Virus record (IMG/VR): IMGVR_UViG_3300021378_000024
Coordinates: 1-60,879 of that record
Source of the DNA: a virus
DNA: 60,879 nucleotides
Reading direction: 5' to 3' (one strand)
Numbering within the stretch: position 1 is the stretch's first letter; the number at the start of each line of letters is the position of its first letter. The notes under the pieces were generated by a model. It worked only from the letters and a program-made list of their open reading frames with translations, did not search any database and had not been told where the DNA came from. The position numbers and the translations under genes were made by a program. Below are positions 40,220 through 54,100 of the stretch, piece by piece.

Positions 40220-40226
40220 CGACACT

Positions 40227-40257
40227 GGGCGGCACCTTCGGGTGCCGCCCTTTTTTT
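40227..40257 (+). terminator. Rho-independent terminator after the 39698 gene
   Basis: GGGCGGCACC (40227-40236), TTCG, GGTGCCGCCC (40241-40250), then seven T. A very strong hairpin 7 bases after the stop codon. Confidence 0.93.
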
Positions 40258-40320
40258 GTGCCTTGGCGCGTCGCACCAGTTCCCCAGCATCAGGCACAGC
40301 GTGCGGCACGGGGCCGGTCT

Positions 40321-40350
40321 GACCAGTTCCATCCACAGCATGAGGCACGT
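40321..40350. repeat. 30-bp direct repeat, copy A
   Basis: Starts GACCAGTTCCATCCACAGCA and ends TGAGGCACGT. A degenerate, shorter relative lies at 40274-40300. Confidence 0.85.
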
Positions 40351-40401
40351 CGCACGGCCCGAAATCGGCCACAACCACAGCGCGAATCGCGTCTGGCGGC
40401 G

Positions 40402-40418
40402 TTATGCGCGGCGCATAA
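40402..40418. repeat. TTATGC palindrome, copy 2
   Basis: TTATGC-GCGGC-GCATAA in non-coding DNA, flanked by G and C so that the arms extend to 7 bp. Confidence 0.85.
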
Positions 40419-40452
40419 CGAAAAAATTCCGGAAAAAATGTCGCCGCAAAAC

Positions 40453-40508
40453 TAAGCTCCCTGCGCTTGCTAACGCTGCTTTGCTGCGTAGCGACGCTTA
40501 GGAGCTTA
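40453..40508. other. Imperfect long hairpin or cruciform
   Basis: TAAGCTCC (40453-40460) pairs with GGAGCTTA (40501-40508); the enclosed sequence (TGCGCTTGCTAACGC / GCGTAGCGACGC) is itself partly self-complementary. No T-run. It could be a structured RNA or DNA cruciform. Confidence 0.35.
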
Positions 40509-40550
40509 CCAAGATTTTCAAATCTGTCAACCCCCCAAACCGCAAAATCT

Positions 40551-40580
40551 CACCAGTTCCATCCACAGCATGAGGCACGT
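40551..40580. repeat. 30-bp direct repeat, copy B
   Basis: Differs from copy A only at its first base (C for G); the next 29 bases are identical. A TTATGC palindrome follows 6 bases later. Confidence 0.85.
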
Positions 40581-40586
40581 TGACTG

Positions 40587-40603
40587 TTATGCGCCGCGCA
40601 TAA
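40587..40603. repeat. TTATGC palindrome, copy 3
   Basis: TTATGC-GCCGC-GCATAA, with flanking G/C extending the arms to 7 bp; directly after 30-bp repeat B. Confidence 0.85.
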
Positions 40604-40653
40604 CGACGGGAACATCCTAACCCATTGTATCTACGTAATGTTCTCAGATCCAT

Positions 40654-40683
40654 GACCAGTTCCAGCCACAGCGTGAGGCCCGT
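40654..40683. repeat. 30-bp direct repeat, copy C
   Basis: GACCAGTTCCAGCCACAGCG then TGAGGCCCGT: three substitutions from copy A. Confidence 0.8.
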
Positions 40684-40699
40684 AAGCCGTTGATACTAA

Positions 40700-41080
40700 A
40701 CGAAAGTTCCCGAGTTTGCCCGAATGTTCTCGGCTCGGGAACATTTAAGTTATTGAAATCATTGGGAACAATAGCAATTGTTCCAATGTTCCCGGATTCC
40801 GAAGGTATACCCCAAGAAAAGTAAAAACGGAGTTCTGTATAAATGGTTATACACAGACGTTCGAAGCAAAAAAAGTCCGGATAACTTCGGAAAATGGGTA
40901 TTTTTGGAACAAAAGAACATTATGCAATATCAAGGACTTAGCATGACTCTATTATTATTATTATTATTCAAATACTTAACTACTACTACTACCATAACGT
41001 GCATAAAAAATCCTTTGTTTTCAATGCCCCCCAAATGTTCCCGGCCCCAAGAACAATCAGAACAATGCCCGGAACAATGC
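40700..41080. promoter_or_regulatory. AT-rich stretch dense in GGAACA/TGTTCC motifs
   Basis: About a dozen GAACA or TGTTC motifs in both orientations lie here, for example near 40705, 40725, 40738, 40765, 40779, 40787, 40906, 41036, 41050 and 41071. ATTGGGAACAAT (40761-40772) and AATTGTTCCAAT (40776-40787) form an imperfect dyad. Microsatellites ATT (40950-40967) and TAC (about 40979-40992) are present. Confidence 0.5.
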
Positions 41081-41084
41081 CATA

Positions 41085-41101
41085 TTATGCGCCGAGCATA
41101 A
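41085..41101. repeat. TTATGC palindrome, copy 4
   Basis: TTATGC-GCCGA-GCATAA, about 50 bases before the promoter at 41153. Confidence 0.85.
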
Positions 41102-41152
41102 TGTTACCACGTAAAATCTCACTTCCTATGTCAAATATCCTCCAGCTACATC

Positions 41153-41181
41153 TTGACATATAACGTGTTATATGATACACT
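41153..41181 (+). promoter_or_regulatory. Strong sigma-70-type promoter with embedded 18-bp dyad
   Basis: TTGACA (41153-41158), 17-base spacer, TACACT (41176-41181). Inside lies CATATAAC-GT-GTTATATG (41157-41174), a perfect dyad with 8-bp arms lying between the -35 and -10 boxes. A repressor bound here would block polymerase. It points at the rightward accessory genes that begin at 41833. Confidence 0.6.
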
Positions 41182-41295
41182 CGAAGAGTGTTGTGTTTGA
41201 TGGGCTTGGTCGCCCGTGCTATTTGACATTGCTGCTCGCATTCTGCCTTGTCCGCCTCGCGCGGCATCGCGGTTTGCCCCTCTGCTAGGCTTCCA

Positions 41296-41312
41296 TTATG
41301 CGTCCCGCATAA
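41296..41312. repeat. TTATGC palindrome, copy 5
   Basis: TTATGC-GTCCC-GCATAA in the transcribed leader downstream of the 41153 promoter; no adjacent start codon with a ribosome site. Confidence 0.85.
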
Positions 41313-41452
41313 CCCCGCCGATCATGCTAGACGACCTGCCGACCTATTGCCTCGGGGTGACGAAAAAATCCCGCTGCGTTGTGCGTCACGTCTCACAAGA
41401 TGAGCCCCCTGCTTCCTTGCCGCCTTCCACAAGCGGCCCGGTTCACCACCTA

Positions 41453-41469
41453 TTATGCTCCGTGCATAA
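41453..41469. repeat. TTATGC palindrome, copy 6
   Basis: TTATGC-TCCGT-GCATAA, flanked by A and T (8-bp total arms with partial match); leader region. Confidence 0.85.
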
Positions 41470-41756
41470 TGGTTGGCTTACGCCGAGCACAATGCCCGGC
41501 GCCGCACCGGTGCGAAGTAAGCGCCAGACTTGCCTAAGAAGCTGTGTGTCCCCAAGGACAAAGACGTGCCGCCCCCAACCCGCGCCATGCGCGGGACGGA
41601 CAACCGACAAGATGCAAGACGGACCCGAAACACGGGCACGGACCCTCGCGATGCGAGGCCCGAACGAACATACAAAGCAGGCGTTCAACGAAACACTGCA
41701 CCATGCGGACTGACAACCCGCGCGGTGCTCGGGACAACACAACCCAACGCCGAGCA

Positions 41757-41826
41757 TTATGCTCGCCCCTGCATAGCAGGGGACAACCACACCACGCCGA
41801 GCATTATGCTCAGCGCATAATAGGAG
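41757..41826. repeat. Composite element: half palindrome, CCCCTGC hairpin, full palindrome (copy 7)
   Basis: TTATGC (41757-41762) with degenerate partner GCATAG, overlapping a perfect hairpin CCCCTGC-ATA-GCAGGGG (41766-41782), then CCACACCACGCCGAG and the full palindrome TTATGC-TCAGC-GCATAA (41804-41820) and AGGAG. Twelve bases separate the palindrome from the ATG at 41833. The same order recurs at 42645-42711. Confidence 0.8.
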
Positions 41827-41832
41827 ACCACC

Positions 41833-42129
41833 ATGACTACATTTGAAACGATCACCCTTTCCCTGCCTGCACACTGGCTTTGCCCTATCCTTTACGGCGA
41901 CACCAGCGGCCTTGACGAGGCCGAGGATCGTGCCTTTTCACGATGGCTGGACGACACCATCCGCGACATTGGTCACGGCACCCTGCCGACGATCGGCACC
42001 ATCAAGGACGACCCCTACTTCGCCCGGTATCACGACGCTGCCGAATACGGTGTGCTGGCGTGTGACTGCTACGACGTCGAGCTGTGTGTGCCTGCAACAC
42101 CAACGCCGATCGTTATGCGCGACGCATAA
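41833..42129 (+). CDS. Small conserved accessory protein, 98 aa
   Basis: TITLSLPAHWLCPILYGDTSGLDEAEDRAFSRWLDDTIRDIG then YFARYHDAAEYGVLACDCYDVELCV. This compact layout is typical of small proteins spread on plasmids and phages of proteobacteria, with no proven function. AGGAG precedes the start. Its stop codon TAA is part of the next palindrome (42113-42129), so element and gene end are interlocked. Confidence 0.75.
   Translation: MTTFETITLSLPAHWLCPILYGDTSGLDEAEDRAFSRWLDDTIRDIGHGTLPTIGTIKDDPYFARYHDAAEYGVLACDCYDVELCVPATPTPIVMRDA
42113..42129. repeat. TTATGC palindrome, copy 8
   Basis: TTATGC-GCGAC-GCATAA, overlapping the last codons and stop of the preceding gene; 13 bases before the ATG at 42143, with AGGAG between. 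Confidence 0.85.
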
Positions 42130-42142
42130 TAGGAGACTGACC

Positions 42143-42448
42143 ATGACGACCACTATAACAACTGCGGACGAGTTCTTTGATACCTACGTGCGCGACGGCG
42201 CATATGACCGCGAGGGCGGCCATGCCGCCCTGCAAAAGCTGCACAACACCGACCGCGGGGCGTTCTACCGCCTGATGACAAGCCCTGAATTTGTAGCGCG
42301 GGCTGTCGCAAACGCCCATGCCTTCGGCATTGTCGATGAGGTGCATGACAACGACGCGGAGATCGACGAGCTCATTGCCGAGGCCGAAGAGCTCGAAGAG
42401 CGTGCCGCCCACCTTCGTGCCTCCGCGGACGCGCTACGCGATGCGTAG
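42143..42448 (+). CDS. Hypothetical protein with C-terminal coiled coil, 101 aa
   Basis: Starts at 42143 behind AGGAG, although the frame is open further upstream. N-terminal half TADEFFDTYVRDGAYDREGGHAALQKLHNTDRGAFYRLM; the C-terminal half is an acidic coiled coil (DNDAEIDELIAEAEELEERAAHLRASADAL). Probably oligomeric. Not recognised. Confidence 0.75.
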   Translation: MTTTITTADEFFDTYVRDGAYDREGGHAALQKLHNTDRGAFYRLMTSPEFVARAVANAHAFGIVDEVHDNDAEIDELIAEAEELEERAAHLRASADALRDA

Positions 42449-42644
42449 GGCCACATGCGTCGACTGCGGCGATACATTCCCCCGGCGCCGTGCGGCGCTG
42501 GGCTACACCACATGCCTGTCGTGCGGCGATGCCGAAGCCGTTGCAGCCCGTGCGACATGGGCTGTCGTTCCCCTGCCCAAGCAGGGTTACACGCGCATCA
42601 CGCGCAAAGAAGAACTGCACCACCTCAACCAGAAGCCGCGCTGA
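42441..42644 (+). CDS. Zinc-ribbon small protein, 67 aa
   Basis: CVDCGDTFPRRRAALGYTTCLSCGDAEAVAAR gives two CxxC knuckles; WAVVPLPKQGYTRITRKEELHHLNQK is a conserved tail known from many phage proteins of this type. Overlaps the previous gene by 8 bases. Function unknown; nucleic-acid binding is plausible. Confidence 0.75.
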   Translation: MRRATCVDCGDTFPRRRAALGYTTCLSCGDAEAVAARATWAVVPLPKQGYTRITRKEELHHLNQKPR

Positions 42645-42711
42645 TTATGCGCCCCCCTGCATAGCAGGGGACACCACCACGCCGGGCATTATGCGCGGCG
42701 TATAATAGGAG
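42645..42711. repeat. Composite element, second copy, with palindrome copy 9
   Basis: TTATGC (42645), hairpin CCCCTGC-ATA-GCAGGGG (42654-42670), CCACCACGCCGGG, then TTATGC-GCGGC-GTATAA (42689-42705, one mismatch) and AGGAG. Twelve bases to the ATG at 42718. Parallel to 41757-41826, so this is a duplicated regulatory cassette. Confidence 0.8.
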
Positions 42712-42717
42712 CCCAAC

Positions 42718-43029
42718 ATGACTACACCATCCCACGTCCGCAAGTTTCTGGACATATCGACCGCACACATCACCGAAAACACTGCGGGGATGCTTGACGA
42801 CTCCGTGCATCAGTTCCTCGGGACTGCGCCGTGCATAGCCTACCCCCTAGGGGACACAGGCTGGCTTGTGTATGTGCCGTCTGATGACAGCCCGAACACC
42901 AATACACTCGCTGAGTTTCACCCAGACCTGCTGACCTGCATGGAATACGCCCGCCAGCACAACTGCGACTACATCATGTTCGATCAGGACGGCACCGTGA
43001 TCGACGACCTCCCTGCATATGATTGGTAA
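42718..43029 (+). CDS. DUF5983-like protein, 103 aa
   Basis: LDISTAHITENTAGMLDD, IAYPLGDTGWLVYVPSDD and ARQHNCDYIMFDQDGTVIDDLPAYDW match the DUF5983 layout, a small accessory protein of plasmids and phages with unknown function. It follows a composite palindrome element. Confidence 0.75.
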   Translation: MTTPSHVRKFLDISTAHITENTAGMLDDSVHQFLGTAPCIAYPLGDTGWLVYVPSDDSPNTNTLAEFHPDLLTCMEYARQHNCDYIMFDQDGTVIDDLPAYDW

Positions 43030-43072
43030 CGGCACTGATGAGACAGGCCAACCTTCAAGAAGGACTGAGAGA

Positions 43073-43315
43073 ATGGAATGGGATTTCCGCTTTGTGAACA
43101 TGCCGTCCGGCAACGGCGGTGATGACTGGATCGAACTGCGTGAGGTCTACTACAGCGACGACGGTAGCCTCATGGGTCACTCTAACCCATGCCCCGGCAG
43201 CGAGACTGTCGAGGGCATCAAGCAACTGGCGCAGTGGTGGCTGCGGGCAAGTGAGTTGCCCGTGCTGCACGAGAAGGACTTCCCGTCCGACTTTGAACCT
43301 GAAGCCAATTACTGA
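43073..43315 (+). CDS. Hypothetical protein, 80 aa
   Basis: Starts at MEWDFRFVNMPSGNGGDDWI behind AAGGACTGAGAG. The frame is open upstream, but the ribosome site supports 43073. Acidic, with a central DDWIELREVYYSDDG strand and GIKQLAQWWLRA helix. Not recognised. Confidence 0.65.
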   Translation: MEWDFRFVNMPSGNGGDDWIELREVYYSDDGSLMGHSNPCPGSETVEGIKQLAQWWLRASELPVLHEKDFPSDFEPEANY

Positions 43316-43328
43316 AAGGACTGAGAGC

Positions 43329-43541
43329 ATGAGCAAGTTTATTCTGTTTAGCCACCATACCTACTACCCCTACGGAGGGATGGGCGACTGCGAGGGTGTG
43401 TTCGACACCCTGCAAGATGCGCTGGCAGCGCCTCGTTTCGGGCCCAACTTCGAGGTGCTGCAAGTGCCTGAAATGATCGTCCACGAGCAAGACGGGCGAG
43501 CGATACCCATAACCGATTACATCAAACGCGAGGAGGAGTAA
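43329..43541 (+). CDS. Hypothetical protein, 70 aa
   Basis: Start at 43329 (MSKFILFSHHTYYPYGGMGD) preceded by AAAGGACTGAGAG, almost the same leader as the gene before. FDTLQDALAAPRFGPNFEVLQV follows a small alpha/beta layout. The reading frame extends upstream only because the neighbouring gene blocks stops. Function unknown. Confidence 0.65.
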   Translation: MSKFILFSHHTYYPYGGMGDCEGVFDTLQDALAAPRFGPNFEVLQVPEMIVHEQDGRAIPITDYIKREEE

Positions 43542-43545
43542 CACC

Positions 43546-43914
43546 ATGAGCACCAAACGTATCACTCACGCCGACATCGTTGCCGACGATGCATTCCGCA
43601 AGGCCTTCTCGGCTATATGCCGACGCGCCCTGCCTTACATGGCTGAGGATGCCTACCACATGGACCTGATATTCGACGCCGAACAAGCCACACGGCTCAA
43701 CCCCGGCGACCGCTTCTACCTGCTGGTGCGTAAGCTGGGGACCAACAACTTCGGATACCCGGACGACGCCGTGCGGCACTGCGACCCGGCTATGAGTGAC
43801 GGGCAGGCTGTCCTGCGTGTCATGCGTGGCTCATACGACACCTTCACCGTCACCGTGCACTACGACAGGAAGCGCGGGCATTATGCTCAGCGCATAACAG
43901 GAGAACCGCTATGA
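43546..43914 (+). CDS. Hypothetical protein, 122 aa
   Basis: THADIVADDAFRKAFSAICRRALPYMAEDAYHMDLIFDAEQATRLNPGDRFYLLVRKLGTNNFG. The last codons (HYAQRITGEPL) are encoded by the palindrome element at 43881-43897 and the ribosome site of the next gene, so the C-terminus is probably a by-product of element insertion. Not recognised. Confidence 0.65.
   Translation: MSTKRITHADIVADDAFRKAFSAICRRALPYMAEDAYHMDLIFDAEQATRLNPGDRFYLLVRKLGTNNFGYPDDAVRHCDPAMSDGQAVLRVMRGSYDTFTVTVHYDRKRGHYAQRITGEPL
43881..43897. repeat. TTATGC palindrome, copy 10
   Basis: TTATGC-TCAGC-GCATAA, 13 bases before the ATG at 43911, with AGGAG; it lies inside the 3' end of the preceding coding frame. Confidence 0.85.
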
Positions 43915-44135
43915 TCGGCCACGACGTTGGCCATGGCCGTGCCAGCGGCGCTGGCCGTGGCAACGGCAACGGCAACGGCTTCGGCAAAGGTGCCGGAGAC
44001 GGCGACGGCTATGGCGTTGGCATCGGTAACGACAGCGGCTTCGGCAACGGCAGCGGCCGTGGCGATGGCAACGGCTCCGGTGACGGCATGGCCCCCGGCT
44101 ATGGCGACGGCGCCGGATACGGAGAAGCACTATGA
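43911..44135 (+). CDS. Glycine-rich low-complexity protein A, 74 aa
   Basis: Nearly every second residue is Gly (GRGNGNGNGFGKGAGDGDGY then GVGIGNDSGFGNGSGRGDGN). The DNA is made of GGCAAC/GGCGAC/GGCAGC-type hexamers. A ribosome site and palindrome precede it. The stop overlaps the next start (ATGA). The pattern is not the RTX nonapeptide. Perhaps a disordered, phase-separating or surface-coating peptide; unknown. Confidence 0.65.
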   Translation: MIGHDVGHGRASGAGRGNGNGNGFGKGAGDGDGYGVGIGNDSGFGNGSGRGDGNGSGDGMAPGYGDGAGYGEAL

Positions 44136-44359
44136 TCGACAACGGCGACGGCAGCGGCAAAGGCACCGCCAACGGCGCTGGCGACGGATACGGCGGCGGG
44201 TATGGCACCGGCAGTGCCAGCGGCTATGGCGATGGATACCACCGATGCGGTCGCGGCACCGGCTACGGCCACGAAGAAACAGCATTACACATACGCATGA
44301 AGGAGACACAGCGTGTTCGACACACTCATAAACACCCCAGTAATCATCCGTTCAAATGA
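44132..44359 (+). CDS. Glycine-rich low-complexity protein B, 75 aa
   Basis: The first 47 residues are of the same X-Gly type (NGDGSGKGTANGAGDGYGGG), then a basic His-rich tail (HIRMKETQRVRHTHKHPSNHPFK). It is a tandem paralogue of the gene before it. The last 47 bases overlap the next gene's start, so the tail may be incidental. Confidence 0.55.
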   Translation: MIDNGDGSGKGTANGAGDGYGGGYGTGSASGYGDGYHRCGRGTGYGHEETALHIRMKETQRVRHTHKHPSNHPFK

Positions 44360-44621
44360 CAGTGGGGTGCATTACGGCTACCTCGCCGAAGTCATCGACA
44401 GCGGGCGGACTGTCCGGCTCACCAACAGCCGTCGCTTGTGGAAGTGGAAGGTTGCCGGAAACGGCATATCCCTGAGCGAGGTTGCTATCACAGGAATCGA
44501 CCACAGCGAGTCGCGCATCACCATGCCGCTGCCCAACCTTGTGGTTGTGGGCGTGTGCGAGATCATCCCCGCGCACGGCATGGCGACAGCCACAATCGAA
44601 GGTGCCCCCGTGGCATCATAA
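44313..44621 (+). CDS. DUF6948-like protein, 102 aa
   Basis: NTPVIIRSNDSGVHYGYLAEVIDSGRTVRLTNSRRLWKWKVAGNGISLSEVAITGIDHSESRITM is the layout of a small conserved phage/plasmid protein (DUF6948-like) of unknown role. It starts inside the preceding Gly-rich frame after AGGAGACACAGC. Confidence 0.75.
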   Translation: MFDTLINTPVIIRSNDSGVHYGYLAEVIDSGRTVRLTNSRRLWKWKVAGNGISLSEVAITGIDHSESRITMPLPNLVVVGVCEIIPAHGMATATIEGAPVAS

Positions 44622-44640
44622 GCTACACCAATGCCGGGCA

Positions 44641-44657
44641 TTATGCTCGGCGCATAA
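44641..44657. repeat. TTATGC palindrome, copy 11
   Basis: TTATGC-TCGGC-GCATAA; upstream GCCGGGCA (44633-44640) can pair with TGCTCGGC (44644-44651) as an alternative hairpin. Fifteen bases to the MoxR ATPase start. Confidence 0.85.
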
Positions 44658-44672
44658 CTACGGAGAACCACT

Positions 44673-45767
44673 ATGACTAACCAAGCACATGCAATGTATA
44701 ACGTCGACCTCGATCAGGCGACGCAGATGATCGCCACCATGGGCCACAAGCGCACCATTCTGGTGCAGGGCCACATGGGCACCGGCAAGTCCAGCATGCT
44801 CAAGACGCTGGCGGATATGTTTCCCAACCATATCCCCTGCTACTTCGACGCCACGACCAAGGACCTCGGCGACCTGATGCTGCCGCGCATCGCCGAACTC
44901 GATGCAGGTGCAAGCTATGTCAGCTACGCACCCAACGAAGAGCTGGGCATCCACCACAGTCGGCCTGTGATCGTCATGCTGGACGAGTATGGCAAGGCCA
45001 ACCCCGCCGTGAAGCAGGGTCTAACTGCCTTCATGCTGGAGCGTCGCATGGGCAACCTCAAGCTGCACCCGGACAGCATTGTGTTTGCCACGACAAACCT
45101 CGGCGGCGAGGGCGTGGGCGACATGCTGGTGGCGCACCAGCGCAACCGCATCACCGTGGTGACGCTGAAGAAGCCCGACTATATGAACTACATCGAGTGG
45201 GGTATCAACAACGGCATCGACCACACCCTGCTCGGATGGGTCAAGGACAACCCCCATGTGTTCCAGTCCTTCGAGGATGTGCAGAACCCCGAAGACAACC
45301 CCTACATCTTCCACCCTCGCTCGCAGCGGGCGGCCTTCGTCACGCCACGGTCGCTCGAAGCTGCATCGGACTGGCTAAAGGTAAGGGACCGCCTCGACGA
45401 CATGAGCCTCACCGCGGCGCTGATCGGCACGGTGGGCGACCGGGCGGCCATGGACCTCATGGCCTTCGTGCGTCTGTCCAACGACCTGCCGACACTCAAG
45501 TCGATCAAGGAGACCCCCGAGACGGCCAAGGTGCCAGAGTCCGCCGCAGCCGTGTGCATGGTGGTCTATCGCACACTGGCCAGCATCGAGGCCGATTGGC
45601 TTGACGCGTGGATGACATACCTAAACCGGCTGCCTGCCGAGGCGCAGGGCCTGTTCGCTAACGGCGTGCGGGCACCGAAGTATGCCAAGCAGGGCCTTGT
45701 CATGACAAACAAGGCCTTCACTCAGTGGGCTCGGGCAAAAAGTCACTTGTTCGCCGCGGATGTGTAA
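44673..45767 (+). CDS. MoxR-type AAA+ ATPase
   Basis: A 364-aa ATPase. Walker A GHMGTGKSS (33-41), Walker B VIVMLDEYGKA (D104, E105), sensor 1 IVFATTNLGG, and an arginine-finger-type HQRNRITVVTL. The C-terminal helical part suits the MoxR clade. It leads a three-gene module with a helical protein and a VWA metallopeptidase, the same pairing logic as RavA-ViaA and MoxR-VWA systems, which remodel or activate protein complexes. The target here is unknown. Confidence 0.85.
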   Translation: MTNQAHAMYNVDLDQATQMIATMGHKRTILVQGHMGTGKSSMLKTLADMFPNHIPCYFDATTKDLGDLMLPRIAELDAGASYVSYAPNEELGIHHSRPVIVMLDEYGKANPAVKQGLTAFMLERRMGNLKLHPDSIVFATTNLGGEGVGDMLVAHQRNRITVVTLKKPDYMNYIEWGINNGIDHTLLGWVKDNPHVFQSFEDVQNPEDNPYIFHPRSQRAAFVTPRSLEAASDWLKVRDRLDDMSLTAALIGTVGDRAAMDLMAFVRLSNDLPTLKSIKETPETAKVPESAAAVCMVVYRTLASIEADWLDAWMTYLNRLPAEAQGLFANGVRAPKYAKQGLVMTNKAFTQWARAKSHLFAADV

Positions 45768-45775
45768 CTGGTCAT

Positions 45776-45802
45776 AAATCGCCAAAATTTTTACGGCGAT
45801 TT
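45776..45802. promoter_or_regulatory. AT-rich hairpin after the MoxR gene
   Basis: AAATCGCC (45776-45783) can pair with GGCGATTT at 45795-45802, or with either of two more copies further on. No clear T-run; it may be a weak attenuator or just slippage-derived. Confidence 0.4.
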
Positions 45803-45827
45803 AACGGCGATTTAACGGCGATTTAAC
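45795..45827. repeat. Three GGCGATTTAAC repeats forming CtrA-box-like TTAA-N7-TTAA-N7-TTAAC
   Basis: Three exact 11-bp copies. Read from 45801 they give TTAA-CGGCGAT-TTAA-CGGCGAT-TTAAC, two overlapping matches to the TTAA-N7-TTAA consensus of the alphaproteobacterial cell-cycle regulator CtrA. They lie about 50 bases before the second gene of the MoxR module. Confidence 0.6.
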
Positions 45828-45839
45828 CCGCCCGGCGCC

Positions 45840-45856
45840 TTATGCGCCGGGCATAA
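45840..45856. repeat. TTATGC palindrome, copy 12
   Basis: TTATGC-GCCGG-GCATAA; upstream CCCGGCGC (45831-45838) pairs perfectly with GCGCCGGG (45844-45851), so two exclusive hairpins are possible. Nineteen bases to the ATG at 45876. Confidence 0.85.
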
Positions 45857-45875
45857 CAACCTGAAAGGTAATACA

Positions 45876-46772
45876 ATGGACTTTATCAACAACACCCCCA
45901 ACGTCTCGGCCCCGTCGATCTCTTCGGCATCCATGCTGGTGGAGCTCGGCATCAGCATCTGGACCGGGCGCAAGAAGGACAAGGCAGCCTCGGCCGACGT
46001 CACCGCCCTGAACGCCGCACACACCGGCGTGGCATCGGTGAACAAGAAGCTGTTGGGTGACTGCGAGGAGCTGACCGCACTGCAGAAGTTCGCTGGCAAC
46101 GTGCGGACCATGCACTACAGCATGACAATGCCGTGGTCAGACAGTGGCATGCGCTTGCTGCCGACGTCGGTGTATTTCAAGTATCACCAGCAGATGACTT
46201 CCCTGCAGCAAGAGTTTGACCGGCTCGTGCAGGTGTTCCTCGACGCCTACGACTGGGAGGTCGTGCAAGCACAGGTCAAGCTGGGCAACCTGTTTCACCG
46301 TGACGAGTATCCAACTGTGGACAGCCTGCGTGACAAGTTTGGGTTCCGCATGTCCTACATCCCCCTGCCCGACGCCGGTGACTGGCGTGTGGACATGGAG
46401 CGGGACGCTCAGAACACCCTGCGCGATCAGTACGCGGACTTCTACCGCAAGCAGGTGGAGGGTGCGATGCGTGACGTATGGGAGCGGCTGCATACCGAGA
46501 TCACCCGGTTCATCAAGCAGCTGGACGTCGACGCCGAAGGCCGCAAGGGTAAGATCTACGACAGCACCATGGAGCACGTGCTGCACCTGACGGACATGAT
46601 GGAGGCAGCCAACTTCACCAACGACCCCAACCTGCAGCTGGCGCAGCACAAGATCCGCGCAGCGCTGGAGGGCGTCGAGCGCATGGACCTCGTGCGTAAC
46701 GACAACTTCCGGTCCAACACCAAGCGAGCCATGGAGGAAGCCATCGCAGCCCTGCCCGGTCTGGGGATGTGA
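45876..46772 (+). CDS. Helical middle protein of the MoxR-VWA module, 298 aa
   Basis: No catalytic motif is seen. Long helices (LGNLFHRDEYPTVDSLRDKFGFRMSYIPLP, QVEGAMRDVWERLHTEITRFIKQLDVDAEGRKGKIYDSTMEHVLHLTDMMEAAN). It is bracketed by the ATPase and the VWA metallopeptidase, which suggests an adaptor or substrate. It carries its own palindrome and the CtrA-like boxes. It resembles the mid-gene of similar phage modules, but I cannot name a family with confidence. Confidence 0.8.
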   Translation: MDFINNTPNVSAPSISSASMLVELGISIWTGRKKDKAASADVTALNAAHTGVASVNKKLLGDCEELTALQKFAGNVRTMHYSMTMPWSDSGMRLLPTSVYFKYHQQMTSLQQEFDRLVQVFLDAYDWEVVQAQVKLGNLFHRDEYPTVDSLRDKFGFRMSYIPLPDAGDWRVDMERDAQNTLRDQYADFYRKQVEGAMRDVWERLHTEITRFIKQLDVDAEGRKGKIYDSTMEHVLHLTDMMEAANFTNDPNLQLAQHKIRAALEGVERMDLVRNDNFRSNTKRAMEEAIAALPGLGM

Positions 46773-46802
46773 CCAAACGCAGACACCAACCAGCGGGGCG
46801 CA

Positions 46803-46819
46803 TTATGCGCCCCGCATAA
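46803..46819. repeat. TTATGC palindrome, copy 13
   Basis: TTATGC-GCCCC-GCATAA; upstream GGGGCGCA (46795-46802) pairs with TGCGCCCC (46806-46813) as a competing stem. Fifteen bases to the ATG at 46835. Confidence 0.85.
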
Positions 46820-46834
46820 TTACAGGAGAACAAC

Positions 46835-48043
46835 ATGTTACACGTTAAACTTTCAGCCGAACAACGGCTTGAGAAAGCCGTGATCGCAATCATGGCGGAG
46901 CCCAAGTATGTCGCCCTCGCCGGTGTCTTGATGATCGGCAAGCGCACAGTGTCCGACACAGTGCCGACTGCCTGCACCAACGGGCGCGACGAGTTCTATG
47001 GGCGGGCCTTCGTCGACAGCCTCAACGACAAGCAGCTGCGGTTCCTCGTGCTGCACGAGGTGTATCACAAGCTGTATCGCCACCTGACCACGTGGCGCTG
47101 GATGTATGACGAGAACCCGCAGCTGGCCAACATGGCGTGCGACTATGTCATCAACACTCAGCTGGTCGCCGACAACAAGGACAAGTTCGCCACGATGGAC
47201 GGTCCCCTGTCCGCCGGGTGCTACGACGACAAGTATATCGGCTGGGACAGTGCCATGGTCTTCGCCGACCTCAAGAAGCGGGGGAAGGGCCAGCAGAGCG
47301 GACAGGGCCAGCCCGGCGACGGGCAGGGTAACGAGCAGGGCTTCGACGAGCACGACTGGGATGGCGCCAAGGAGATGTCGGAGTCCGAGAAGCAGGCGCT
47401 TGCGCGGGATATCGACGAGGCGGTGCGCCAAGGTGCCTTGGCTGCGGGCAAGATGGGGTCGGGCGGGGCCCGGACATTCGCCGAGCTGCTGCAACCACAA
47501 CAGGACTGGCGGGCTGCCCTGCGTGACTTTGTTACGGCAACCTGTGCCGGCCGCGACTATTCCACGTGGAAGAAGCCAAACCGCCGCTACATCGGCGCGG
47601 GTATCTACATGCCGTCCGGCATCAGCGAGCAGATCGGTGAGATCGTCATCGCCCCGGACATGTCTGGGTCGATCGGAGCAACAGAGATCCAGCGCATGCT
47701 GTCCGAGGTCAAAGGCATCGCCGATACCGTTCATCCCGAGGCGGTGCGGTTGCTATACTGGGACACCAAGGTCTGTGCCGACGAGCGGTATGAATCGCAT
47801 GAGCTTGACACGCTGACGCAGACAACCAAACCTGCGGGGGGTGGAGGCACAATGGTGGAGTGCGTGCCCGCACATATGGGCGAGCATGGCATCAAGGCCC
47901 AGTGCGCGGTTGTGTTTACCGATGGCTGGCTTGGCGGCACGTGGGGTGAGTGGCCCTGCCCGGTGCTCTGGGTCATCGTCGACAACAAGGGCTGCAACCC
48001 GCCGTTCGGCACCACGGTGCACGTGACGGCACGTGATCTGTAA
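46835..48043 (+). CDS. VWA-like putative metallopeptidase (DUF2201-type)
   Basis: A 402-aa protein. HEVYHKLYRH (H74-E75-x2-H78) is a metallopeptidase-type HExxH near the N-terminus, followed by NMACDYVINTQL, a Gly/Gln linker (GQQSGQGQPGDGQGNEQG) and a C-terminal VWA domain with MIDAS D275-M-S-G-S279 in IAPDMSGSIGATE. This combination is the DUF2201/VWA-like family usually paired with a MoxR ATPase. It probably acts with the two upstream genes on a protein complex. Confidence 0.85.
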   Translation: MLHVKLSAEQRLEKAVIAIMAEPKYVALAGVLMIGKRTVSDTVPTACTNGRDEFYGRAFVDSLNDKQLRFLVLHEVYHKLYRHLTTWRWMYDENPQLANMACDYVINTQLVADNKDKFATMDGPLSAGCYDDKYIGWDSAMVFADLKKRGKGQQSGQGQPGDGQGNEQGFDEHDWDGAKEMSESEKQALARDIDEAVRQGALAAGKMGSGGARTFAELLQPQQDWRAALRDFVTATCAGRDYSTWKKPNRRYIGAGIYMPSGISEQIGEIVIAPDMSGSIGATEIQRMLSEVKGIADTVHPEAVRLLYWDTKVCADERYESHELDTLTQTTKPAGGGGTMVECVPAHMGEHGIKAQCAVVFTDGWLGGTWGEWPCPVLWVIVDNKGCNPPFGTTVHVTARDL

Positions 48044-48055
48044 CGACGCCGGGCG

Positions 48056-48072
48056 TTATGCCCGGCACATAA
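48056..48072. repeat. TTATGC palindrome, copy 14
   Basis: TTATGC-CCGGC-ACATAA (one mismatch); upstream GCCGGGC pairs with GCCCGGC across the centre (about 48048-48066). Thirteen bases to the ATG at 48086. Confidence 0.8.
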
Positions 48073-48085
48073 TAGGAGAGAAGAT

Positions 48086-48499
48086 ATGGGATATAGAAGT
48101 GACGTGGTTCTGGTGGCGGTGTTCGCCAACGCAGAGCAGCATGACGAGGTGATGTCTGTCTACCGCATGGACCCCAACGTGCAGAAGCACGGCCTTGAGG
48201 CGGCGTGGCGACGTGTCGACTTCAACAAGGGCGAGGTGGCCCGCATCTACGAGGGCAACAACGTCAAGTGGTATGAGTCATACGAAGACGTGCAGGCCCT
48301 ATGCCGCTTGGCCAGCCTGTTGGCTGACTTCCACGAGGACCGCAAGTTTGACTACGCGTGGGGTGAAGGCCGCGTCGGCGAAGAAGAGGCCGATATTGTT
48401 TACGACGTGACCAGCGGGTCGACAGACAGGTCAGAAGACCTACGCGACATTATCTACGACGGGCTTCGAATCGAACGCCGCGTCTACGTTGGATTTTAA
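48086..48499 (+). CDS. MGYRSDV-type small phage protein, 137 aa
   Basis: Begins with the distinctive MGYRSDVVLVAVFANAEQHDEVMSVY, known from other phage accessory regions, and continues VKWYESYEDVQALCRLASLLADFHEDRKFDYAWGEGRVGEEEADIVYD. Probably a soluble alpha/beta protein. Function not known. Confidence 0.75.
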   Translation: MGYRSDVVLVAVFANAEQHDEVMSVYRMDPNVQKHGLEAAWRRVDFNKGEVARIYEGNNVKWYESYEDVQALCRLASLLADFHEDRKFDYAWGEGRVGEEEADIVYDVTSGSTDRSEDLRDIIYDGLRIERRVYVGF

Positions 48500-48510
48500 G
48501 GAGAGAAGAT

Positions 48511-49122
48511 ATGGCACAGAAATACAGCGCGGCGTTCATCGAAGCGCATCGTGACTTCAACGTCGACCACCGGTGGTGGGAGAGCATATACGAAGACTTC
48601 TATCGCATCTGCACGATCCTCGGCATCGAGCTGAACAAGAACGAGCCGAACTTCTCGGGCTTCTGGTCGCAGGGTGACGGCGCCTCGTGGGCCGGGCGAT
48701 ACAGGTCCCGTGCGCTTAGTCTTAATACGCGAAGCGGATATGCCCCAACATACGACCTAGCACCTGCACAGATACGCGAGCACGCGCCGCAGGACGAAGA
48801 ACTCCACCGTATCGCAGATGAGCTGTGCTTGCTGGCCCGCATCTACGGGCCGACCTACGCCGTCGTGGGTCGCAGCTCCAGCCACTACGTGCACTCAAAC
48901 ACCATGTGCATCAACGAGTGGGAGTATGACGACGACCGGGACAGTGATGACGTCGACGGGGTGATCCTCGACCACATCGAAGAGGCCCTGCTTGCTACGT
49001 TTACGGCGCTGGCAGAGTGGCTCTACACGTCGCTGGATGCAGAATACGAGTACCTGATAAGTGACGAAGCCGTGATCGAGACACTGGAAGCTAACGATAT
49101 TGAAGAGGAAGCGGTTGCGTAA
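48511..49122 (+). CDS. Conserved phage accessory protein, 203 aa
   Basis: YEDFYRICTILGIELNKNEPNFSGFWSQGDGASWAGRYRSRAL is the core of a phage-spread family sometimes labelled as an antitoxin relative; I see no partner toxin here, so that label is not supported. Later APQDEELHRIADELCLLARIYGP and an acidic C-terminus with LAEWLYTSLDAEYEYLISDEAV. Preceded by AAGGAGAG. Confidence 0.75.
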   Translation: MAQKYSAAFIEAHRDFNVDHRWWESIYEDFYRICTILGIELNKNEPNFSGFWSQGDGASWAGRYRSRALSLNTRSGYAPTYDLAPAQIREHAPQDEELHRIADELCLLARIYGPTYAVVGRSSSHYVHSNTMCINEWEYDDDRDSDDVDGVILDHIEEALLATFTALAEWLYTSLDAEYEYLISDEAVIETLEANDIEEEAVA

Positions 49123-49139
49123 TTATGCGCCCCGCATAA
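49123..49139. repeat. TTATGC palindrome, copy 15
   Basis: TTATGC-GCCCC-GCATAA immediately after the stop codon of the previous gene; fifteen bases to the ATG at 49155. Confidence 0.85.
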
Positions 49140-49154
49140 CAGGAGAGAAGTGAA

Positions 49155-49910
49155 ATGGGTTTTGTATTGAATATGTATGATGTCCCGTATGTAACGTCCT
49201 ACGCGGAAGCTGTGGCGTTCTATGAGCGCAGCGTGCCGTGGCGCAACGGCGGAGAGGATCGCCCGCTGGTGAACAAGCGCCACCGTGGTATGGGCGTGCG
49301 GCTCGTCGGGGACGCCGTTGTGTTCCGCTACCACACCACTGACGTGGTTAGCTGGGGGCCAGACGGCTCCTACGAGATCGACAACGGTCGCTACTACAGC
49401 AGGTCCACCTGCGAGTTTGCGAACAACTTCATGCCGCGCATGCACTGGCTCATGAGCGAGACGAAGCACCTGCGTATTAATGACCACATCCACCCCATAT
49501 GGGACTGCCGTCGGTTGCTGGTGTCCGCCGATGGCGTTGTATCTGGGCCCGGCCTCGGGCGCTTCATGAAGCGCACCGTCAACCGCAAGCAGGCTCGCAC
49601 CCTGCTCAAGGCACTGGGCTACTACGAGTATCTCGACTGGCACAAGGCGATGTATCCCATGGTGCAGGACACCATGCCACCCCGCTGGAAACGTGAGCAT
49701 GTGCGCGTCGACCAGATTGTCGAACTCTTAGCGCAGGGTGTCTACGCATACTACCAGCTCATGATGTCAAACGGGGGCGAGCCCGATACGGTCCGCGAGG
49801 TGCTGTATGCGGCCTTCGGCGATGCACGCAATGTGTGGGATGCAGCATACCACGACCGACTGCCAAGCGCCACTAACCTCCGTGGCTACGACGTTGTTAT
49901 GAAAGGATAA
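49155..49910 (+). CDS. Conserved phage hypothetical protein, 251 aa
   Basis: GVRLVGDAVVFRYHTTDVVSWGPDGSYEIDNGRYYSRSTCEFANNFMP is a beta-rich core known from several phage proteins without function; the C-terminal half is helical (RKQARTLLKALGYYEYLDWHKAM). It follows a palindrome and AGGAGAG. Confidence 0.75.
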   Translation: MGFVLNMYDVPYVTSYAEAVAFYERSVPWRNGGEDRPLVNKRHRGMGVRLVGDAVVFRYHTTDVVSWGPDGSYEIDNGRYYSRSTCEFANNFMPRMHWLMSETKHLRINDHIHPIWDCRRLLVSADGVVSGPGLGRFMKRTVNRKQARTLLKALGYYEYLDWHKAMYPMVQDTMPPRWKREHVRVDQIVELLAQGVYAYYQLMMSNGGEPDTVREVLYAAFGDARNVWDAAYHDRLPSATNLRGYDVVMKG

Positions 49911-49913
49911 CTT

Positions 49914-50372
49914 ATGAGTAAACCAAGCCGACCCTGCTCGACACCCGAGCAGCTTCCACAACAAGAAGGAGACCAACTGATGGACCTGAAGACCAAAGCA
50001 ATAGAGAAGATCGCCCGCCAGCTCAAGATCTTGGGCTGTGATTACATGATCGTGCCAGACGGTGACGCCGACAAGGCGATCATCAACGGCAACTTCACGC
50101 ACCACAAGCGGACGAAGCGTGGTGAGTGCACCAAGCACATAGCCAGCTATGCCGCCAACCTACAGCCGGGTGAGAGCGTCACCATACCTGTCGGCGAGTT
50201 CTCACTGGATACCCTCCAGAGTGCGGTGTCGGCCTATGCCTTCCGCACCTTCGGTAAGGGTAACTACATGTCCGGCAGGACGCCGGATGAGACCGGTGTC
50301 GAGCTCCTCTGCCTCGGCCAGCCCGAGGACACAGACGAGCCAACAGACGAACACGTTATGCGGGAGGAATAA
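49914..50372 (+). CDS. Small DNA- or RNA-binding-type hypothetical protein, 152 aa
   Basis: Two starts are possible: 49914 behind AAAGGA, or 49981 (MDLKTKAIEKIARQLKILGC) behind AAGGAG, which would give 130 aa. DYMIVPDGDADKAIINGNFTHHKRTKRGECTKHIASYAANLQPGESVTIPVGEFSLDTLQSAVSAYAFRTFGKGNYMS suggests a compact basic domain. Not assigned. Its stop region (TTATGC-GGGAG-GAATAA, 50356-50372) resembles a decayed palindrome. Confidence 0.65.
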   Translation: MSKPSRPCSTPEQLPQQEGDQLMDLKTKAIEKIARQLKILGCDYMIVPDGDADKAIINGNFTHHKRTKRGECTKHIASYAANLQPGESVTIPVGEFSLDTLQSAVSAYAFRTFGKGNYMSGRTPDETGVELLCLGQPEDTDEPTDEHVMREE

Positions 50373-50740
50373 TGGATGTAACCGTGGACTGTAGCTACCT
50401 CGCCTGCGACCTCGAGATGGTGATTTCACTACTTCGGGGCGTCGCGCCATACGCGCTGACTGCCGAGATGGTGTTGGACATGACCAAGTCGGACACCGAT
50501 GCAGTGTGGCGCGTCGAAGAACTCCACGATGGGCGAGTCGAAACCACATACATCGGCTTTTATCCCATTGACTATGACCGCGTAATATACTACGAAGACA
50601 GTTCAAAGCTACCCGAGTGGATTAACGATCGTGTAGCTGTATTACGTATGATGCCGTGTAATCCAACCACAAGTATAGTGTTTGGTGTCGGCAGGCGGAT
50701 ATCAGAGTCCGTCTTTTGGGTAGTTAAGGGGGATAACTAA
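50372..50740 (+). CDS. Hypothetical protein, 122 aa
   Basis: Start overlaps the previous stop (TAATG) and its stop overlaps the next start. LEMVISLLRGVAPYALTAEMVLDMT then WRVEELHDGRVETTYIGFYPIDYDR. Codon use is slightly less GC-rich than neighbours (ATA, AGT, TTA). Not recognised. Confidence 0.6.
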   Translation: MDVTVDCSYLACDLEMVISLLRGVAPYALTAEMVLDMTKSDTDAVWRVEELHDGRVETTYIGFYPIDYDRVIYYEDSSKLPEWINDRVAVLRMMPCNPTTSIVFGVGRRISESVFWVVKGDN

Positions 50741-51024
50741 TGGCAATGACTCCGGAGGCAAAAGTAAAGAAGCGTGTGGTCGCCTTACTCAAGGCGGCCG
50801 GTGCCTACTACTTCTACCCAGTGACGGGCGGCTTCGGCGCCTCCGGGGTTCCAGACATCATCGTGTGTCACAAGGGCAGGTTCATCGGCATCGAGTGCAA
50901 GGCCGGCAAGAACAAGCCCACAAAACTACAGCAGAAAAACCTCGCCGATATCGCCGCAGCTGGCGGTATCTCGCTCGTTGTAAACGAGCTTAACATTCAC
51001 GAGGTCGAAGACCTCATTACCTGA
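50740..51024 (+). CDS. VRR-NUC-domain nuclease
   Basis: A 94-aa single-domain nuclease: EAKVKKRVVALLKAAGAYYFYPVTGGFGASGVPDIIVCHKGRFIGIECKAGKNKPTKLQQKNLADIAAAGG. PD...ECKAGK is the PD-(D/E)XK core and Q in KLQQ the following conserved residue. Such phage VRR-NUC proteins are thought to resolve branched DNA, like Holliday-junction nucleases. Confidence 0.85.
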   Translation: MAMTPEAKVKKRVVALLKAAGAYYFYPVTGGFGASGVPDIIVCHKGRFIGIECKAGKNKPTKLQQKNLADIAAAGGISLVVNELNIHEVEDLIT

Positions 51025-51036
51025 AAGGATAATAAA

Positions 51037-51279
51037 ATGACTGACTATCAACCGACATTCGGACCGGTAGTGATCGAATGGGACGACAACCCCGGAACGC
51101 TGGTGGCCAAGTGCCAGAGCGGACGGTTTGATTGCAGAGGGCGCATCGGTGGGGCGTGCGTTTGGCATGAGCACGAAGACGGCGAGGCGAGAAAACTGCC
51201 CGACGACATGCTGACACCTAACTGGTGCGAATATAAGGCCGCCGCGCTGGCTGACGCCGAGGAGATGAACAATGGCTAA
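51037..51279 (+). CDS. Hypothetical protein, 80 aa
   Basis: FGPVVIEWDDNPGTLVAKCQSGRFDCRGRIGGACVWHEHEDGEA has three Cys and His residues that could bind metal. Preceded by AAAGGA and overlapping the next gene by 8 bases. Unknown. Confidence 0.65.
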   Translation: MTDYQPTFGPVVIEWDDNPGTLVAKCQSGRFDCRGRIGGACVWHEHEDGEARKLPDDMLTPNWCEYKAAALADAEEMNNG

Positions 51280-51547
51280 TTGGTCAGACTTTGAAGTGCA
51301 CCCGATTGGGACAAGCGACCGGATCATGCAAGGGGCGCGTGGGCCGGGAGTCGGCCTCAATGATGACCCGCAAGCAGGGCTCCGTCGTGGGTACTGGATG
51401 GCCCACGACGGACCGATACACATGTCCAACATGTGCGACGAGCATGTCCTGAATGCGTACCGGACGTGCATTTGGCACGGCAACGACACCAAGGCAGACG
51501 AGCTACTGACTGAGCTCGAACACCGAGACCTAGACTGGAGAGTATGA
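51272..51547 (+). CDS. Hypothetical protein, 91 aa
   Basis: N-terminus WSDFEVHPIGTSDRI resembles that of the protein at 52071 (TDFETNPVGTGERI), suggesting a shared small module. The rest (MSNMCDEHVLNAYRTCIWHGNDTKADELLTEL) is helical with two Cys. Not recognised. Confidence 0.65.
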   Translation: MANWSDFEVHPIGTSDRIMQGARGPGVGLNDDPQAGLRRGYWMAHDGPIHMSNMCDEHVLNAYRTCIWHGNDTKADELLTELEHRDLDWRV

Positions 51548-52068
51548 TGCCCGAGCACGAAGAACTTAGCGATATGGATGATATCGACGACGCGATTGCT
51601 GCGGTGACGCTAGGTATGGCGCTTATCGTCGCCGTGTTTGTCGCCGCTCTTTTTGTCCTCACCATGTTGACACCAACCGCAGCCACCGCCGGTCCTGACC
51701 GGGCTTATATCCTCGCAGGCTCAAAGCACCTTGGCACGGACCACGAGTTCAACGAGATCAACCCCGGTTTGTTCCTGACATGGGAACTGGATCGCTTCGA
51801 CGTCACCGTGGGGGCATATCACAACAGCTACGGCAGCGGGTCTCTTGCTGCCAGCGTGGCCTATCCCCTTGTCAGGGGCGAGGACTGGTCCGTGGACGCC
51901 TTCGCAGGGCTGGCGACATACTTCGGCACCACCAACCCCAACATCGTTCCTATGGCCGGTCTACAGGCCCGCTATGGGCCTGCGTTCGTCCAGTATGTCC
52001 CGGTGCCGGGTGGTCAGTATATGGACGGTCTTGTTTCGTTTGGCCTGACCTTTGAGGTTGGAGACTGA
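51544..52068 (+). CDS. Outer-membrane beta-barrel-like protein with N-terminal membrane/signal segment
   Basis: A 174-aa protein. Residues about 20-43 (VTLGMALIVAVFVAALFVLTML) form a signal anchor, followed by TPTAATAGPDRA, a plausible cleavage region. The rest is alternating beta strands (INPGLFLTWELDRFDVTVGAYHNSYGSGSLAASVAYPL, VDAFAGLATYFG, MAGLQARYGPAFVQYVPV) ending FGLTFEV, with a C-terminal aromatic-rich strand as in small barrels. This resembles small LPS-modifying or PagP/PagL-like barrels in layout. A role in superinfection exclusion or envelope change is a hypothesis. Confidence 0.65.
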   Translation: MMPEHEELSDMDDIDDAIAAVTLGMALIVAVFVAALFVLTMLTPTAATAGPDRAYILAGSKHLGTDHEFNEINPGLFLTWELDRFDVTVGAYHNSYGSGSLAASVAYPLVRGEDWSVDAFAGLATYFGTTNPNIVPMAGLQARYGPAFVQYVPVPGGQYMDGLVSFGLTFEVGD

Positions 52069-52070
52069 CA

Positions 52071-52343
52071 ATGACCGACTTTGAAACCAACCCCGTTGGC
52101 ACAGGGGAGCGGATCGAGGAACTTGAGGCGAAGTTGGCGAAGGCGATTGCAGAAATGGAAAAGGCTGATGGATACCTTACACGCCTACAAACTCGTAACT
52201 CCGAACCTCTCAATAGTGTAAATGGCTGCGGCAGCAAAAAGGGACGCAGCCAATATACTGCAATGGTAAGAAACGAAGCCAGAGAATATTGGGCATCGTT
52301 AGGGAACACCCTCGCAGAACTGAAAGGACAAGACGATGAGTGA
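52071..52343 (+). CDS. Small coiled-coil protein, 90 aa
   Basis: TDFETNPVGTGERIEELEAKLAKAIAEMEKADGYL is a short module plus coiled coil; the C-terminus LAELKGQDDE is encoded by a 28-bp repeat (52311-52338) shared with the gene at 52859. The middle (NSEPLNSVNGCGSKKGRSQYTAMVRNEARE) is less GC-rich. Not recognised. Confidence 0.65.
   Translation: MTDFETNPVGTGERIEELEAKLAKAIAEMEKADGYLTRLQTRNSEPLNSVNGCGSKKGRSQYTAMVRNEAREYWASLGNTLAELKGQDDE
52311..52338. repeat. 28-bp direct repeat at a gene junction, copy 1
   Basis: CTCGCAGAACTGAAAGGACA then AGACGATG; encodes a C-terminus, supplies the ribosome site AAAGGA and the start of the next gene. Identical to 53120-53147. Confidence 0.9.
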
Positions 52344-52616
52344 CAATCTCATAAACTTAGATGAACACCGCCCGCATATCACAGCATACGTCGCCTGCAT
52401 TGACTGCGCTAAGGACTGGATAGCTGTCGCACCCGCAGACACGCTTCACTTTAACTGCCCGGAGTGCGACAAACTTTCCGGTGTGGTTGTTGATCCTGCC
52501 AACCCTGAGTTTATCAACGACTTCATGCGGCCAGCCAAAAAGAAGGCAGAGAAACAGCGCCGCACAATGGTGATGCTAAACGCGGCCCGCATGATTGACG
52601 AGGGGGCTTTTGACTG

Positions 52617-52617
<1 letters not shown>
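52336..52617 (+). CDS. CxxC zinc-finger-type small protein, 93 aa
   Basis: YVACIDCAKDWIAVAPADTLHFNCPECDKLSG gives two CxxC pairs about 18 residues apart, a zinc-ribbon layout. The C-terminus is basic helix (KKKAEKQRRTMVMLNAARMI). Probably nucleic-acid or protein binding; unknown. Confidence 0.7.
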
Positions 52618-52858
<241 letters not shown>

Positions 52859-52862
<4 letters not shown>

Positions 52863-54099: not shown

Positions 54100-54100
54100 C

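What the first reader, a model, noticed from the sequence alone, without database searches (positions are those of the whole stretch)
44673..48043. Phage-borne MoxR ATPase / helical protein / VWA-metallopeptidase module
Three consecutive genes encode an intact MoxR-type AAA+ ATPase, a 298-aa helical protein and a protein with both HExxH (74-78) and a MIDAS DxSxS (275-279). Each has its own palindrome, so they are separately adjustable rather than one tight operon. Cellular MoxR-VWA pairs remodel complexes (RavA-ViaA, metal-chelatase relatives). In a phage this could dismantle a host complex, protect virion assembly, or act in phage-phage or host defence conflict.
Basis: partly seen in the sequence, partly recalled or inferred. 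Interest (0 to 1): 0.72.

Follow-up and report, generated by a model that had tools for sequence, protein, structure and literature searches.

The report
Phage AAA+/DUF3150/metalloprotease-VWA gene trio
Three neighbouring genes in this uncultured phage encode an ATP-driven protein-remodelling motor, a helical partner and a VWA protein with a zinc-protease motif; the same trio recurs in many related phages and in conjugative plasmids, where it sits beside DNA-recombination genes, but what it acts on is unknown.

Summary
Three intact + strand genes encode an AAA+ ATPase (44673-45767), a mostly helical DUF3150 protein (45876-46772) and a DUF2201 protein with HEVYH (74-78) and DMSGS MIDAS (275-279). 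The trio also occurs in a cyanophage and in plasmids; DUF3150 homologues occur in 1,118 plasmids, 969 of them typed conjugative.

The MoxR-VWA-metallopeptidase pair in phages is published (jumbo phages) and present in N4 as gp24/gp25. What seems undescribed in the searched literature is DUF3150 as a constant third part shared by phages and conjugative plasmids. In nine of nine further gammaproteobacterial plasmids sampled, the trio lies beside a lambda-type exonuclease gene, usually with bet/recT.

Best reading: an AAA+ remodelling machine of the MoxR/midasin kind, part of a mobile-element DNA-metabolism toolkit. The machine is well supported; the DNA-complex target is inference. Virion assembly, metal chelation and a stand-alone defence system fit less well.

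The 'own palindromes' are real but belong to a 17-site, phage-specific family upstream of many genes, not to the trio: an interesting side finding.

The parts
44673..45767 (+). AAA+ ATPase of the MoxR/midasin type (364 aa), Walker A/B intact
45876..46772 (+). DUF3150 protein (298 aa), mostly helical; third part of the trio
46835..48043 (+). DUF2201 protein (402 aa): N-terminal zincin-like metallopeptidase domain (HEVYH 74-78) and C-terminal VWA domain with MIDAS
44641..44657 (.). palindrome TTATGCTCGGCGCATAA before the ATPase gene (one of 17 such sites)
45840..45856 (.). palindrome TTATGCGCCGGGCATAA before the DUF3150 gene (one of 17 such sites)
46803..46819 (.). palindrome TTATGCGCCCCGCATAA before the VWA gene (one of 17 such sites)

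Best explanation
The three genes encode one ATP-driven protein-remodelling machine. The AAA+ protein should form a ring. The VWA protein should dock on it through its MIDAS metal site, as ViaA, CbbO, NorD and the midasin MIDAS domain do, and carries a zinc-peptidase domain that may cut or bind the delivered substrate. The DUF3150 protein is a dedicated third part, most likely an adaptor or scaffold that selects the target. The machine is encoded in the early/replication arm of the phage. It most likely acts on a DNA-metabolism complex (replication, recombination or DNA establishment) of the phage or host, because plasmid-borne versions sit with ssb, bet/recT and lambda-type exonuclease genes. 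Shown here: the genes, their motifs, their conserved association in phages and plasmids, and the plasmid neighbourhood. Inferred: the physical complex, ring formation, proteolysis, the adaptor role and the target.
For: Intact motifs in all three parts. Co-occurrence in 36 of 36 complete viral contigs with orders D-A-V, A-D-V and A-V-D and gaps up to about 2 kb, so linkage survives rearrangement. Same trio in cyanophage MinM2, a Methylophilaceae MAG contig, Burkholderiales plasmids, pCAR1 and nine more gammaproteobacterial plasmids; in all nine a lambda-exonuclease-type gene is within a few kb, in eight an annotated bet/recT. DUF3150 homologues in 1,118 plasmids, 969 conjugative. The very different CobT-like plasmid VWA proteins still keep an N-terminal HExxH and a MIDAS. 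Midasin is the nearest solved relative by profile for the ATPase; MDN1/Rea1 MIDAS and NorD are among the VWA fold hits. The trio lies in the early/replication arm, with VRR-NUC/Hjc-like (50740), RNase T-like exonuclease (54529), DNA polymerase A (55352), PD-(D/E)XK nuclease (57331) and helicase (58310) genes downstream.
Against: No direct evidence of a complex, activity or target. The recombination-gene association is strong only in gammaproteobacterial plasmids, several of them related (IncC-like); it is not seen within 6 kb in the Burkholderiales plasmids. N4-like phages carry only the ATPase and VWA genes, so DUF3150 is not universally needed. Some relatives have HEDEGH instead of HExxH and one plasmid copy lacks the motif, so proteolysis may not be obligatory. 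Published SXT deletions of bet, exo, s067, s068 and s070 reduced transfer tenfold or less (PMC2791158); that s067/s068 are the DUF3150 and VWA genes is my inference from gene order.
Confidence: 0.5

Rival explanations
1. Virion-assembly chaperone: the ATPase-VWA pair helps fold, assemble or proteolytically process structural proteins, as proposed for group 2.2 jumbo phages and reported for the tail of an Acidianus virus.
For: Published proposal for the homologous jumbo-phage MoxR-vWA-metallopeptidase pair (PMC7824862). The zincin motif would suit processing of virion proteins.
Against: The same trio is in conjugative plasmids, which make no virions. The genes lie in the early/replication arm with the other orientation than the structural genes; timing of expression itself was not measured.
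Confidence: 0.15
2. Host takeover or counter-defence: the machine dismantles or cleaves a host complex that would harm incoming DNA, in phages and in conjugative plasmids alike.
For: Carriage by both phages and conjugative plasmids; position 4-8 kb into the early arm; remodelling motor plus protease motif.
Against: No known anti-defence gene or PADLOC match; no conserved neighbour of that kind seen. Not separable from the best explanation by sequence alone.
Confidence: 0.2
3. Metal-chelatase or cofactor-insertion system, as the plasmid annotations CobS/CobT suggest.
For: Plasmid VWA partners match CobT weakly (2.6e-6), and the pAQU1 ATPase is annotated as cobaltochelatase CobS (PMC4036041).
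Against: CobS model 14.3 bits against 558.55; no chelatase large subunit in the neighbourhoods viewed.
Confidence: 0.03
4. Stand-alone defence or superinfection-exclusion system related to MoxR-vWA ternary conflict systems.
For: MoxR-vWA ternary conflict systems are described in bacteria (PMC7159879); weak bpMoxR matches of plasmid ATPases.
Against: PADLOC: nothing for genes 2 and 3. No separate effector gene seen. Part of the phage early arm across the lineage rather than a variable island.
Confidence: 0.08

Closest known systems
N4 gp24/gp25 and other Schitoviridae (phrog_1297 / phrog_1314)
   Same: ATPase followed by a DUF2201 zincin-VWA protein, upstream of the helicase and DNA polymerase genes
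   Different: no DUF3150 gene between or beside them in N4; about 22-32% identity
MoxR-vWA(metallopeptidase) pair of group 2.2 jumbo phages (PMC7824862)
   Same: MoxR AAA+ with a vWA protein fused to an N-terminal metallopeptidase domain
   Different: described as a pair with a proposed role in virion assembly; the passages read do not mention DUF3150
pCAR1 ORF101-103 (PMC2642839) and the IncC / MOBH-plasmid AAA-DUF3150-VWA cluster
   Same: same three parts; VWA protein with HExxH and MIDAS
   Different: pCAR1 ATPase has a CbbQ_C domain; VWA protein is the larger CobT-like type (about 600 aa); beside ssb-bet/recT-exo in most plasmids viewed
Synechococcus phage MinM2 / Planktothrix phage Pag-Yong1
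   Same: MoxR ATPase, DUF3150 and VWA-like DUF2201 genes within 4.5 kb, same order
   Different: small genes inserted between them; about 27% identity
RavA-ViaA, CbbQ-CbbO, NorQ-NorD, midasin/Rea1
   Same: AAA+ ring plus MIDAS/VWA partner (own knowledge; fold and profile hits)
   Different: two-part or single-chain; no DUF3150 and no zincin domain known to me in these VWA partners

Membership tests
MoxR-type AAA+ ATPase | Pfam AAA_5 model above its cut-off | tested here: not met
   15.2 bits against 22; the MinM2 and pCAR1 ATPases do reach it
MoxR-type AAA+ ATPase | Walker A, Walker B, sensor-1 Asn | tested here: met
MoxR-type AAA+ ATPase | MoxR helix-2 insert and hexamer formation | not tested
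DUF2201 metallopeptidase-VWA family | PF13203 and PF09967 both above cut-off | tested here: met
   96.0 and 52.6 bits against 23.2 and 26.4
DUF2201 metallopeptidase-VWA family | peptidase activity | not testable with these tools
   motif only
DUF3150 (PF11348) | model above cut-off | tested here: met
   28.1 bits against 24.9; profile comparison with the pCAR1 protein is weak (E 0.0014, probability 17%)
Cobaltochelatase CobNST | CobS model above cut-off | tested here: not met
   14.3 bits against 558.55
Known anti-phage defence system | PADLOC component match | tested here: not met
   no match for genes 2 and 3; gene 1 only weak P-loop matches, best E 0.0019
AAA+/VWA pair of the RavA-ViaA kind | AAA+ gene linked to a VWA gene | tested here: met
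AAA+/VWA pair of the RavA-ViaA kind | physical interaction of ATPase and VWA protein | not testable with these tools
   no complex prediction available

The most novel reading that the evidence does not exclude
AAA+/DUF3150/zincin-VWA is a distinct three-part, protease-armed remodelling machine, shared by a large uncultured phage lineage and by conjugative plasmids, that works on recombination or replication complexes, or removes a host factor from them, so that incoming DNA can establish itself.
Probability: 0.25. Interest if true: 0.7.

Novelty: new variant of a known kind. Interest (0 to 1): 0.48.

Why it matters
If the trio is one machine, it is a conserved tool of unknown purpose carried by more than a thousand sequenced plasmids, mostly conjugative and including IncC plasmids, and by a phage lineage recovered from many metagenomes. 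Its link to lambda-Red-like recombination genes gives a testable role, and DUF3150, which no paper in the searched library mentions, would gain a context.

Tried and rejected
The PHROG label 'HNH endonuclease' for gene 3 was rejected: Pfam gives metallopeptidase + VWA. Structural neighbours of DUF3150: Foldseek found nothing below E 0.001 in the PDB, and VIA-align showed only common helical bundles over residues 184-298; BFVD gave other uncharacterised DUF3150-like phage proteins and, more weakly, one of Mycobacterium phage Dylan. Corndog was not in the collection, so a trio in Cluster O phages could not be checked. A phylum-wide family search needs a genome handle that I did not have. The papers on SXT/R391 and IncA/C read here did not discuss the ATPase, DUF3150 and VWA genes as a unit. 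s063 of SXT, whose loss cuts transfer about 100-fold, is not a trio part by homology: in pAQU1 its homologue (CDS 091) is distinct from CobS (096) and VWA (102). A regulator for the palindromes was only hinted at (53145-53618, weak MarR-like match). A first attempt to hand in this report was mis-formatted.

Full report
WHAT IS THERE. The window is a whole IMG/VR virus record of 60,879 bases. Leftward genes include portal, terminase, tail and a 2,261-aa virion-type protein. Rightward genes from about 39.7 kb on form what I call the early/replication arm, by gene content and not by measured timing: VRR-NUC/Hjc-like, RNase T-like exonuclease, DNA polymerase A, PD-(D/E)XK nuclease, helicase and, at the other end of the record, a primase/helicase-like protein. 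Their coordinates and lengths, the HExxH at 74-78 and the MIDAS DxSxS at 275-279 are as described.

IDENTITY. Gene 1 is an AAA+ ATPase by motifs and by phrog_1297 (4e-45). It stays below the Pfam AAA_5 cut-off, so 'MoxR-type' is a fair description but not a model-based assignment. With a 21-sequence profile its best solved relative is midasin (5.5e-8). Gene 2 is DUF3150. Its model (mean pLDDT 77, pTM 0.49) is mostly helical with a few strands and has no informative fold match. Gene 3 is DUF2201_N + DUF2201: a zincin-like peptidase domain and a VWA domain with the MIDAS residues D275, S277, S279, T339 and D363. Its model matches VWA domains, including MDN1/Rea1 MIDAS and NorD of NorQD.

CO-OCCURRENCE. 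A scan of 2.9 million viral contigs with the DUF3150 protein gave 44 loci, 43-85% identical. Thirty-six carry all three genes on the same strand. In the other eight, the contig ends at or near the DUF3150 gene, so a missing partner could lie beyond the end. Some contigs are near-duplicates, so the independent number is smaller. Three gene orders occur in the viral loci: DUF3150-ATPase-VWA 28, ATPase-DUF3150-VWA 5, ATPase-VWA-DUF3150 3. The genes stay together although their order changes, which is better evidence of joint function than a fixed order would be. The trio is also in cyanophage MinM2, in a Methylophilaceae MAG contig and in Burkholderiales plasmids. N4 has only the ATPase and VWA genes (gp24, gp25), so the pair also exists without DUF3150.

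PLASMIDS AND THE CLUE TO FUNCTION. The pCAR1 cluster noted in 2009 (PMC2642839) is AAA ATPase - DUF3150 - VWA. Its DUF3150 protein finds homologues in 1,118 plasmids, 969 typed conjugative. Nine further plasmids taken from a spread listing were opened. All nine have the ATPase, DUF3150 and VWA genes close together and a lambda-exonuclease-type gene within a few kb; eight also have an annotated bet or recT, several an ssb. In pCAR1 the recT and exonuclease genes are about 13-19 kb away. Several of the nine are relatives of IncC, so this is not nine independent events, and I have no background rate for the exonuclease in such plasmids. The VWA proteins of these plasmids belong to a different, CobT-like class, yet all ten gammaproteobacterial copies keep an N-terminal HExxH and a DxSxS. 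Over all 18 VWA proteins checked there, 17 keep the zinc motif. This points to a conserved zincin site, though a structural zinc is not excluded. Homology between the phage and the gammaproteobacterial plasmid proteins is remote: DUF3150 is linked through Pfam, while direct profile comparisons are weak for DUF3150 and VWA and better for the ATPase.

MECHANISM. Shown: the genes, motifs, linkage and neighbourhoods. Inferred: a ring-forming AAA+ motor, a VWA partner docking through its MIDAS and carrying a zinc-peptidase domain, and DUF3150 as adaptor. The position among replication genes and the recombination neighbours in plasmids make a DNA-metabolism complex the likeliest client. Virion assembly, proposed for the jumbo-phage pair (PMC7824862), is hard to reconcile with carriage by plasmids. 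Published SXT deletions of bet, exo, s067, s068 and s070 reduced transfer tenfold or less (PMC2791158). If s067 and s068 are DUF3150 and VWA, as gene order suggests but I could not verify, the trio is not essential for transfer itself.

THE PALINDROMES. Each trio gene is preceded by TTATGC-N5-GCATAA, but so are other genes. There are 17 sites, all between 39578 and 58298. Eleven lie 11-19 nt before the start codon of a plausible gene and just before its Shine-Dalgarno sequence; six lie in the poorly coding stretch 39.5-41.5 kb. Shuffled window sequence gives at most two sites of any such family. Relatives have palindromes in the same kind of place but with their own sequence, for example GTATGC-N5-GCATAC, CTTAGTC-N5-GACTAAG, ATATCACG-N3-CGTGATAT, GTTAGGG-N4-CCCTAAC, TGTATACATATGTATACA; MinM2 has GGTTCA-N3-TGAACC 18 times. 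The stretches read from N4, two other N4-like phages and the trio plasmids have no comparable family. The half-site letters are nearly invariant within a genome, which fits a protein that reads DNA sequence better than a mere RNA hairpin. The nearest described cases are the 17-bp dyad repeats of Cluster O mycobacteriophages, of unknown function and not start-linked, and the SAS/ESAS of Cluster K (PMC4351075, PMC3203893). This is a lineage trait separate from the trio.

VERDICT. A real, conserved gene trio. The pair within it is known; the three-part form shared by phages and conjugative plasmids appears undescribed in the library searched (no paper mentions DUF3150; the library lacks most subscription journals). 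New variant of a known kind, with a target still to be found.

Noticed in passing
39578-58298 (17 sites): Phage-specific start-associated palindromes TTATGC-N5-GCATAA; related phages carry different palindromes at the same kind of position. Looks like dispersed operators of a fast-changing regulator.
   Followed up: partly
46835-48043; phrog_1314: PHROG and RefSeq records name this family 'HNH endonuclease' (N4 gp25, KPP21, Vibrio phages); Pfam and motifs say metallopeptidase + VWA. Likely a propagated annotation error.
   Followed up: yes
43911-44359; L006, L008, L011, L017, L044, L055: Small Gly-rich low-complexity ORFs (GDGYGNGYG...) near the trio in several of these phages.
   Followed up: partly
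42718-43029; L061:5473-5790: DUF5983 gene upstream of the phage trio (E 1e-23) and, in a Pseudomonas aeruginosa plasmid, a DUF5983 family gene between the ATPase and DUF3150 genes.
   Followed up: partly
53145-53618: 157-aa protein with a weak MarR/winged-helix match and relatives in several phages of the lineage: a candidate binder of the palindromes.
   Followed up: partly
39698-40219; L012-L048 (24 loci): First gene of the rightward arm: in 24 relatives a fast-changing family without database match; the window gene's kinship to it is by position only.
   Followed up: partly
51544-52068: PHROG match to a PagP-like lipid A acylation protein (6e-16).
   Followed up: no
3951-10736 (-): 2,261-aa protein with a DarB-like antirestriction match (7e-40) and a weak virion RNA polymerase match.
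   Followed up: no
45790-45828: Direct repeats of CGGCGATTTAA just upstream of the palindrome of the DUF3150 gene.
   Followed up: no
L015, L016, L020, L024, L026, L041 (VWA genes): HEDEGH (HExxxH) instead of HExxH, a spacing known from dipeptidyl peptidase III (own knowledge).
   Followed up: no
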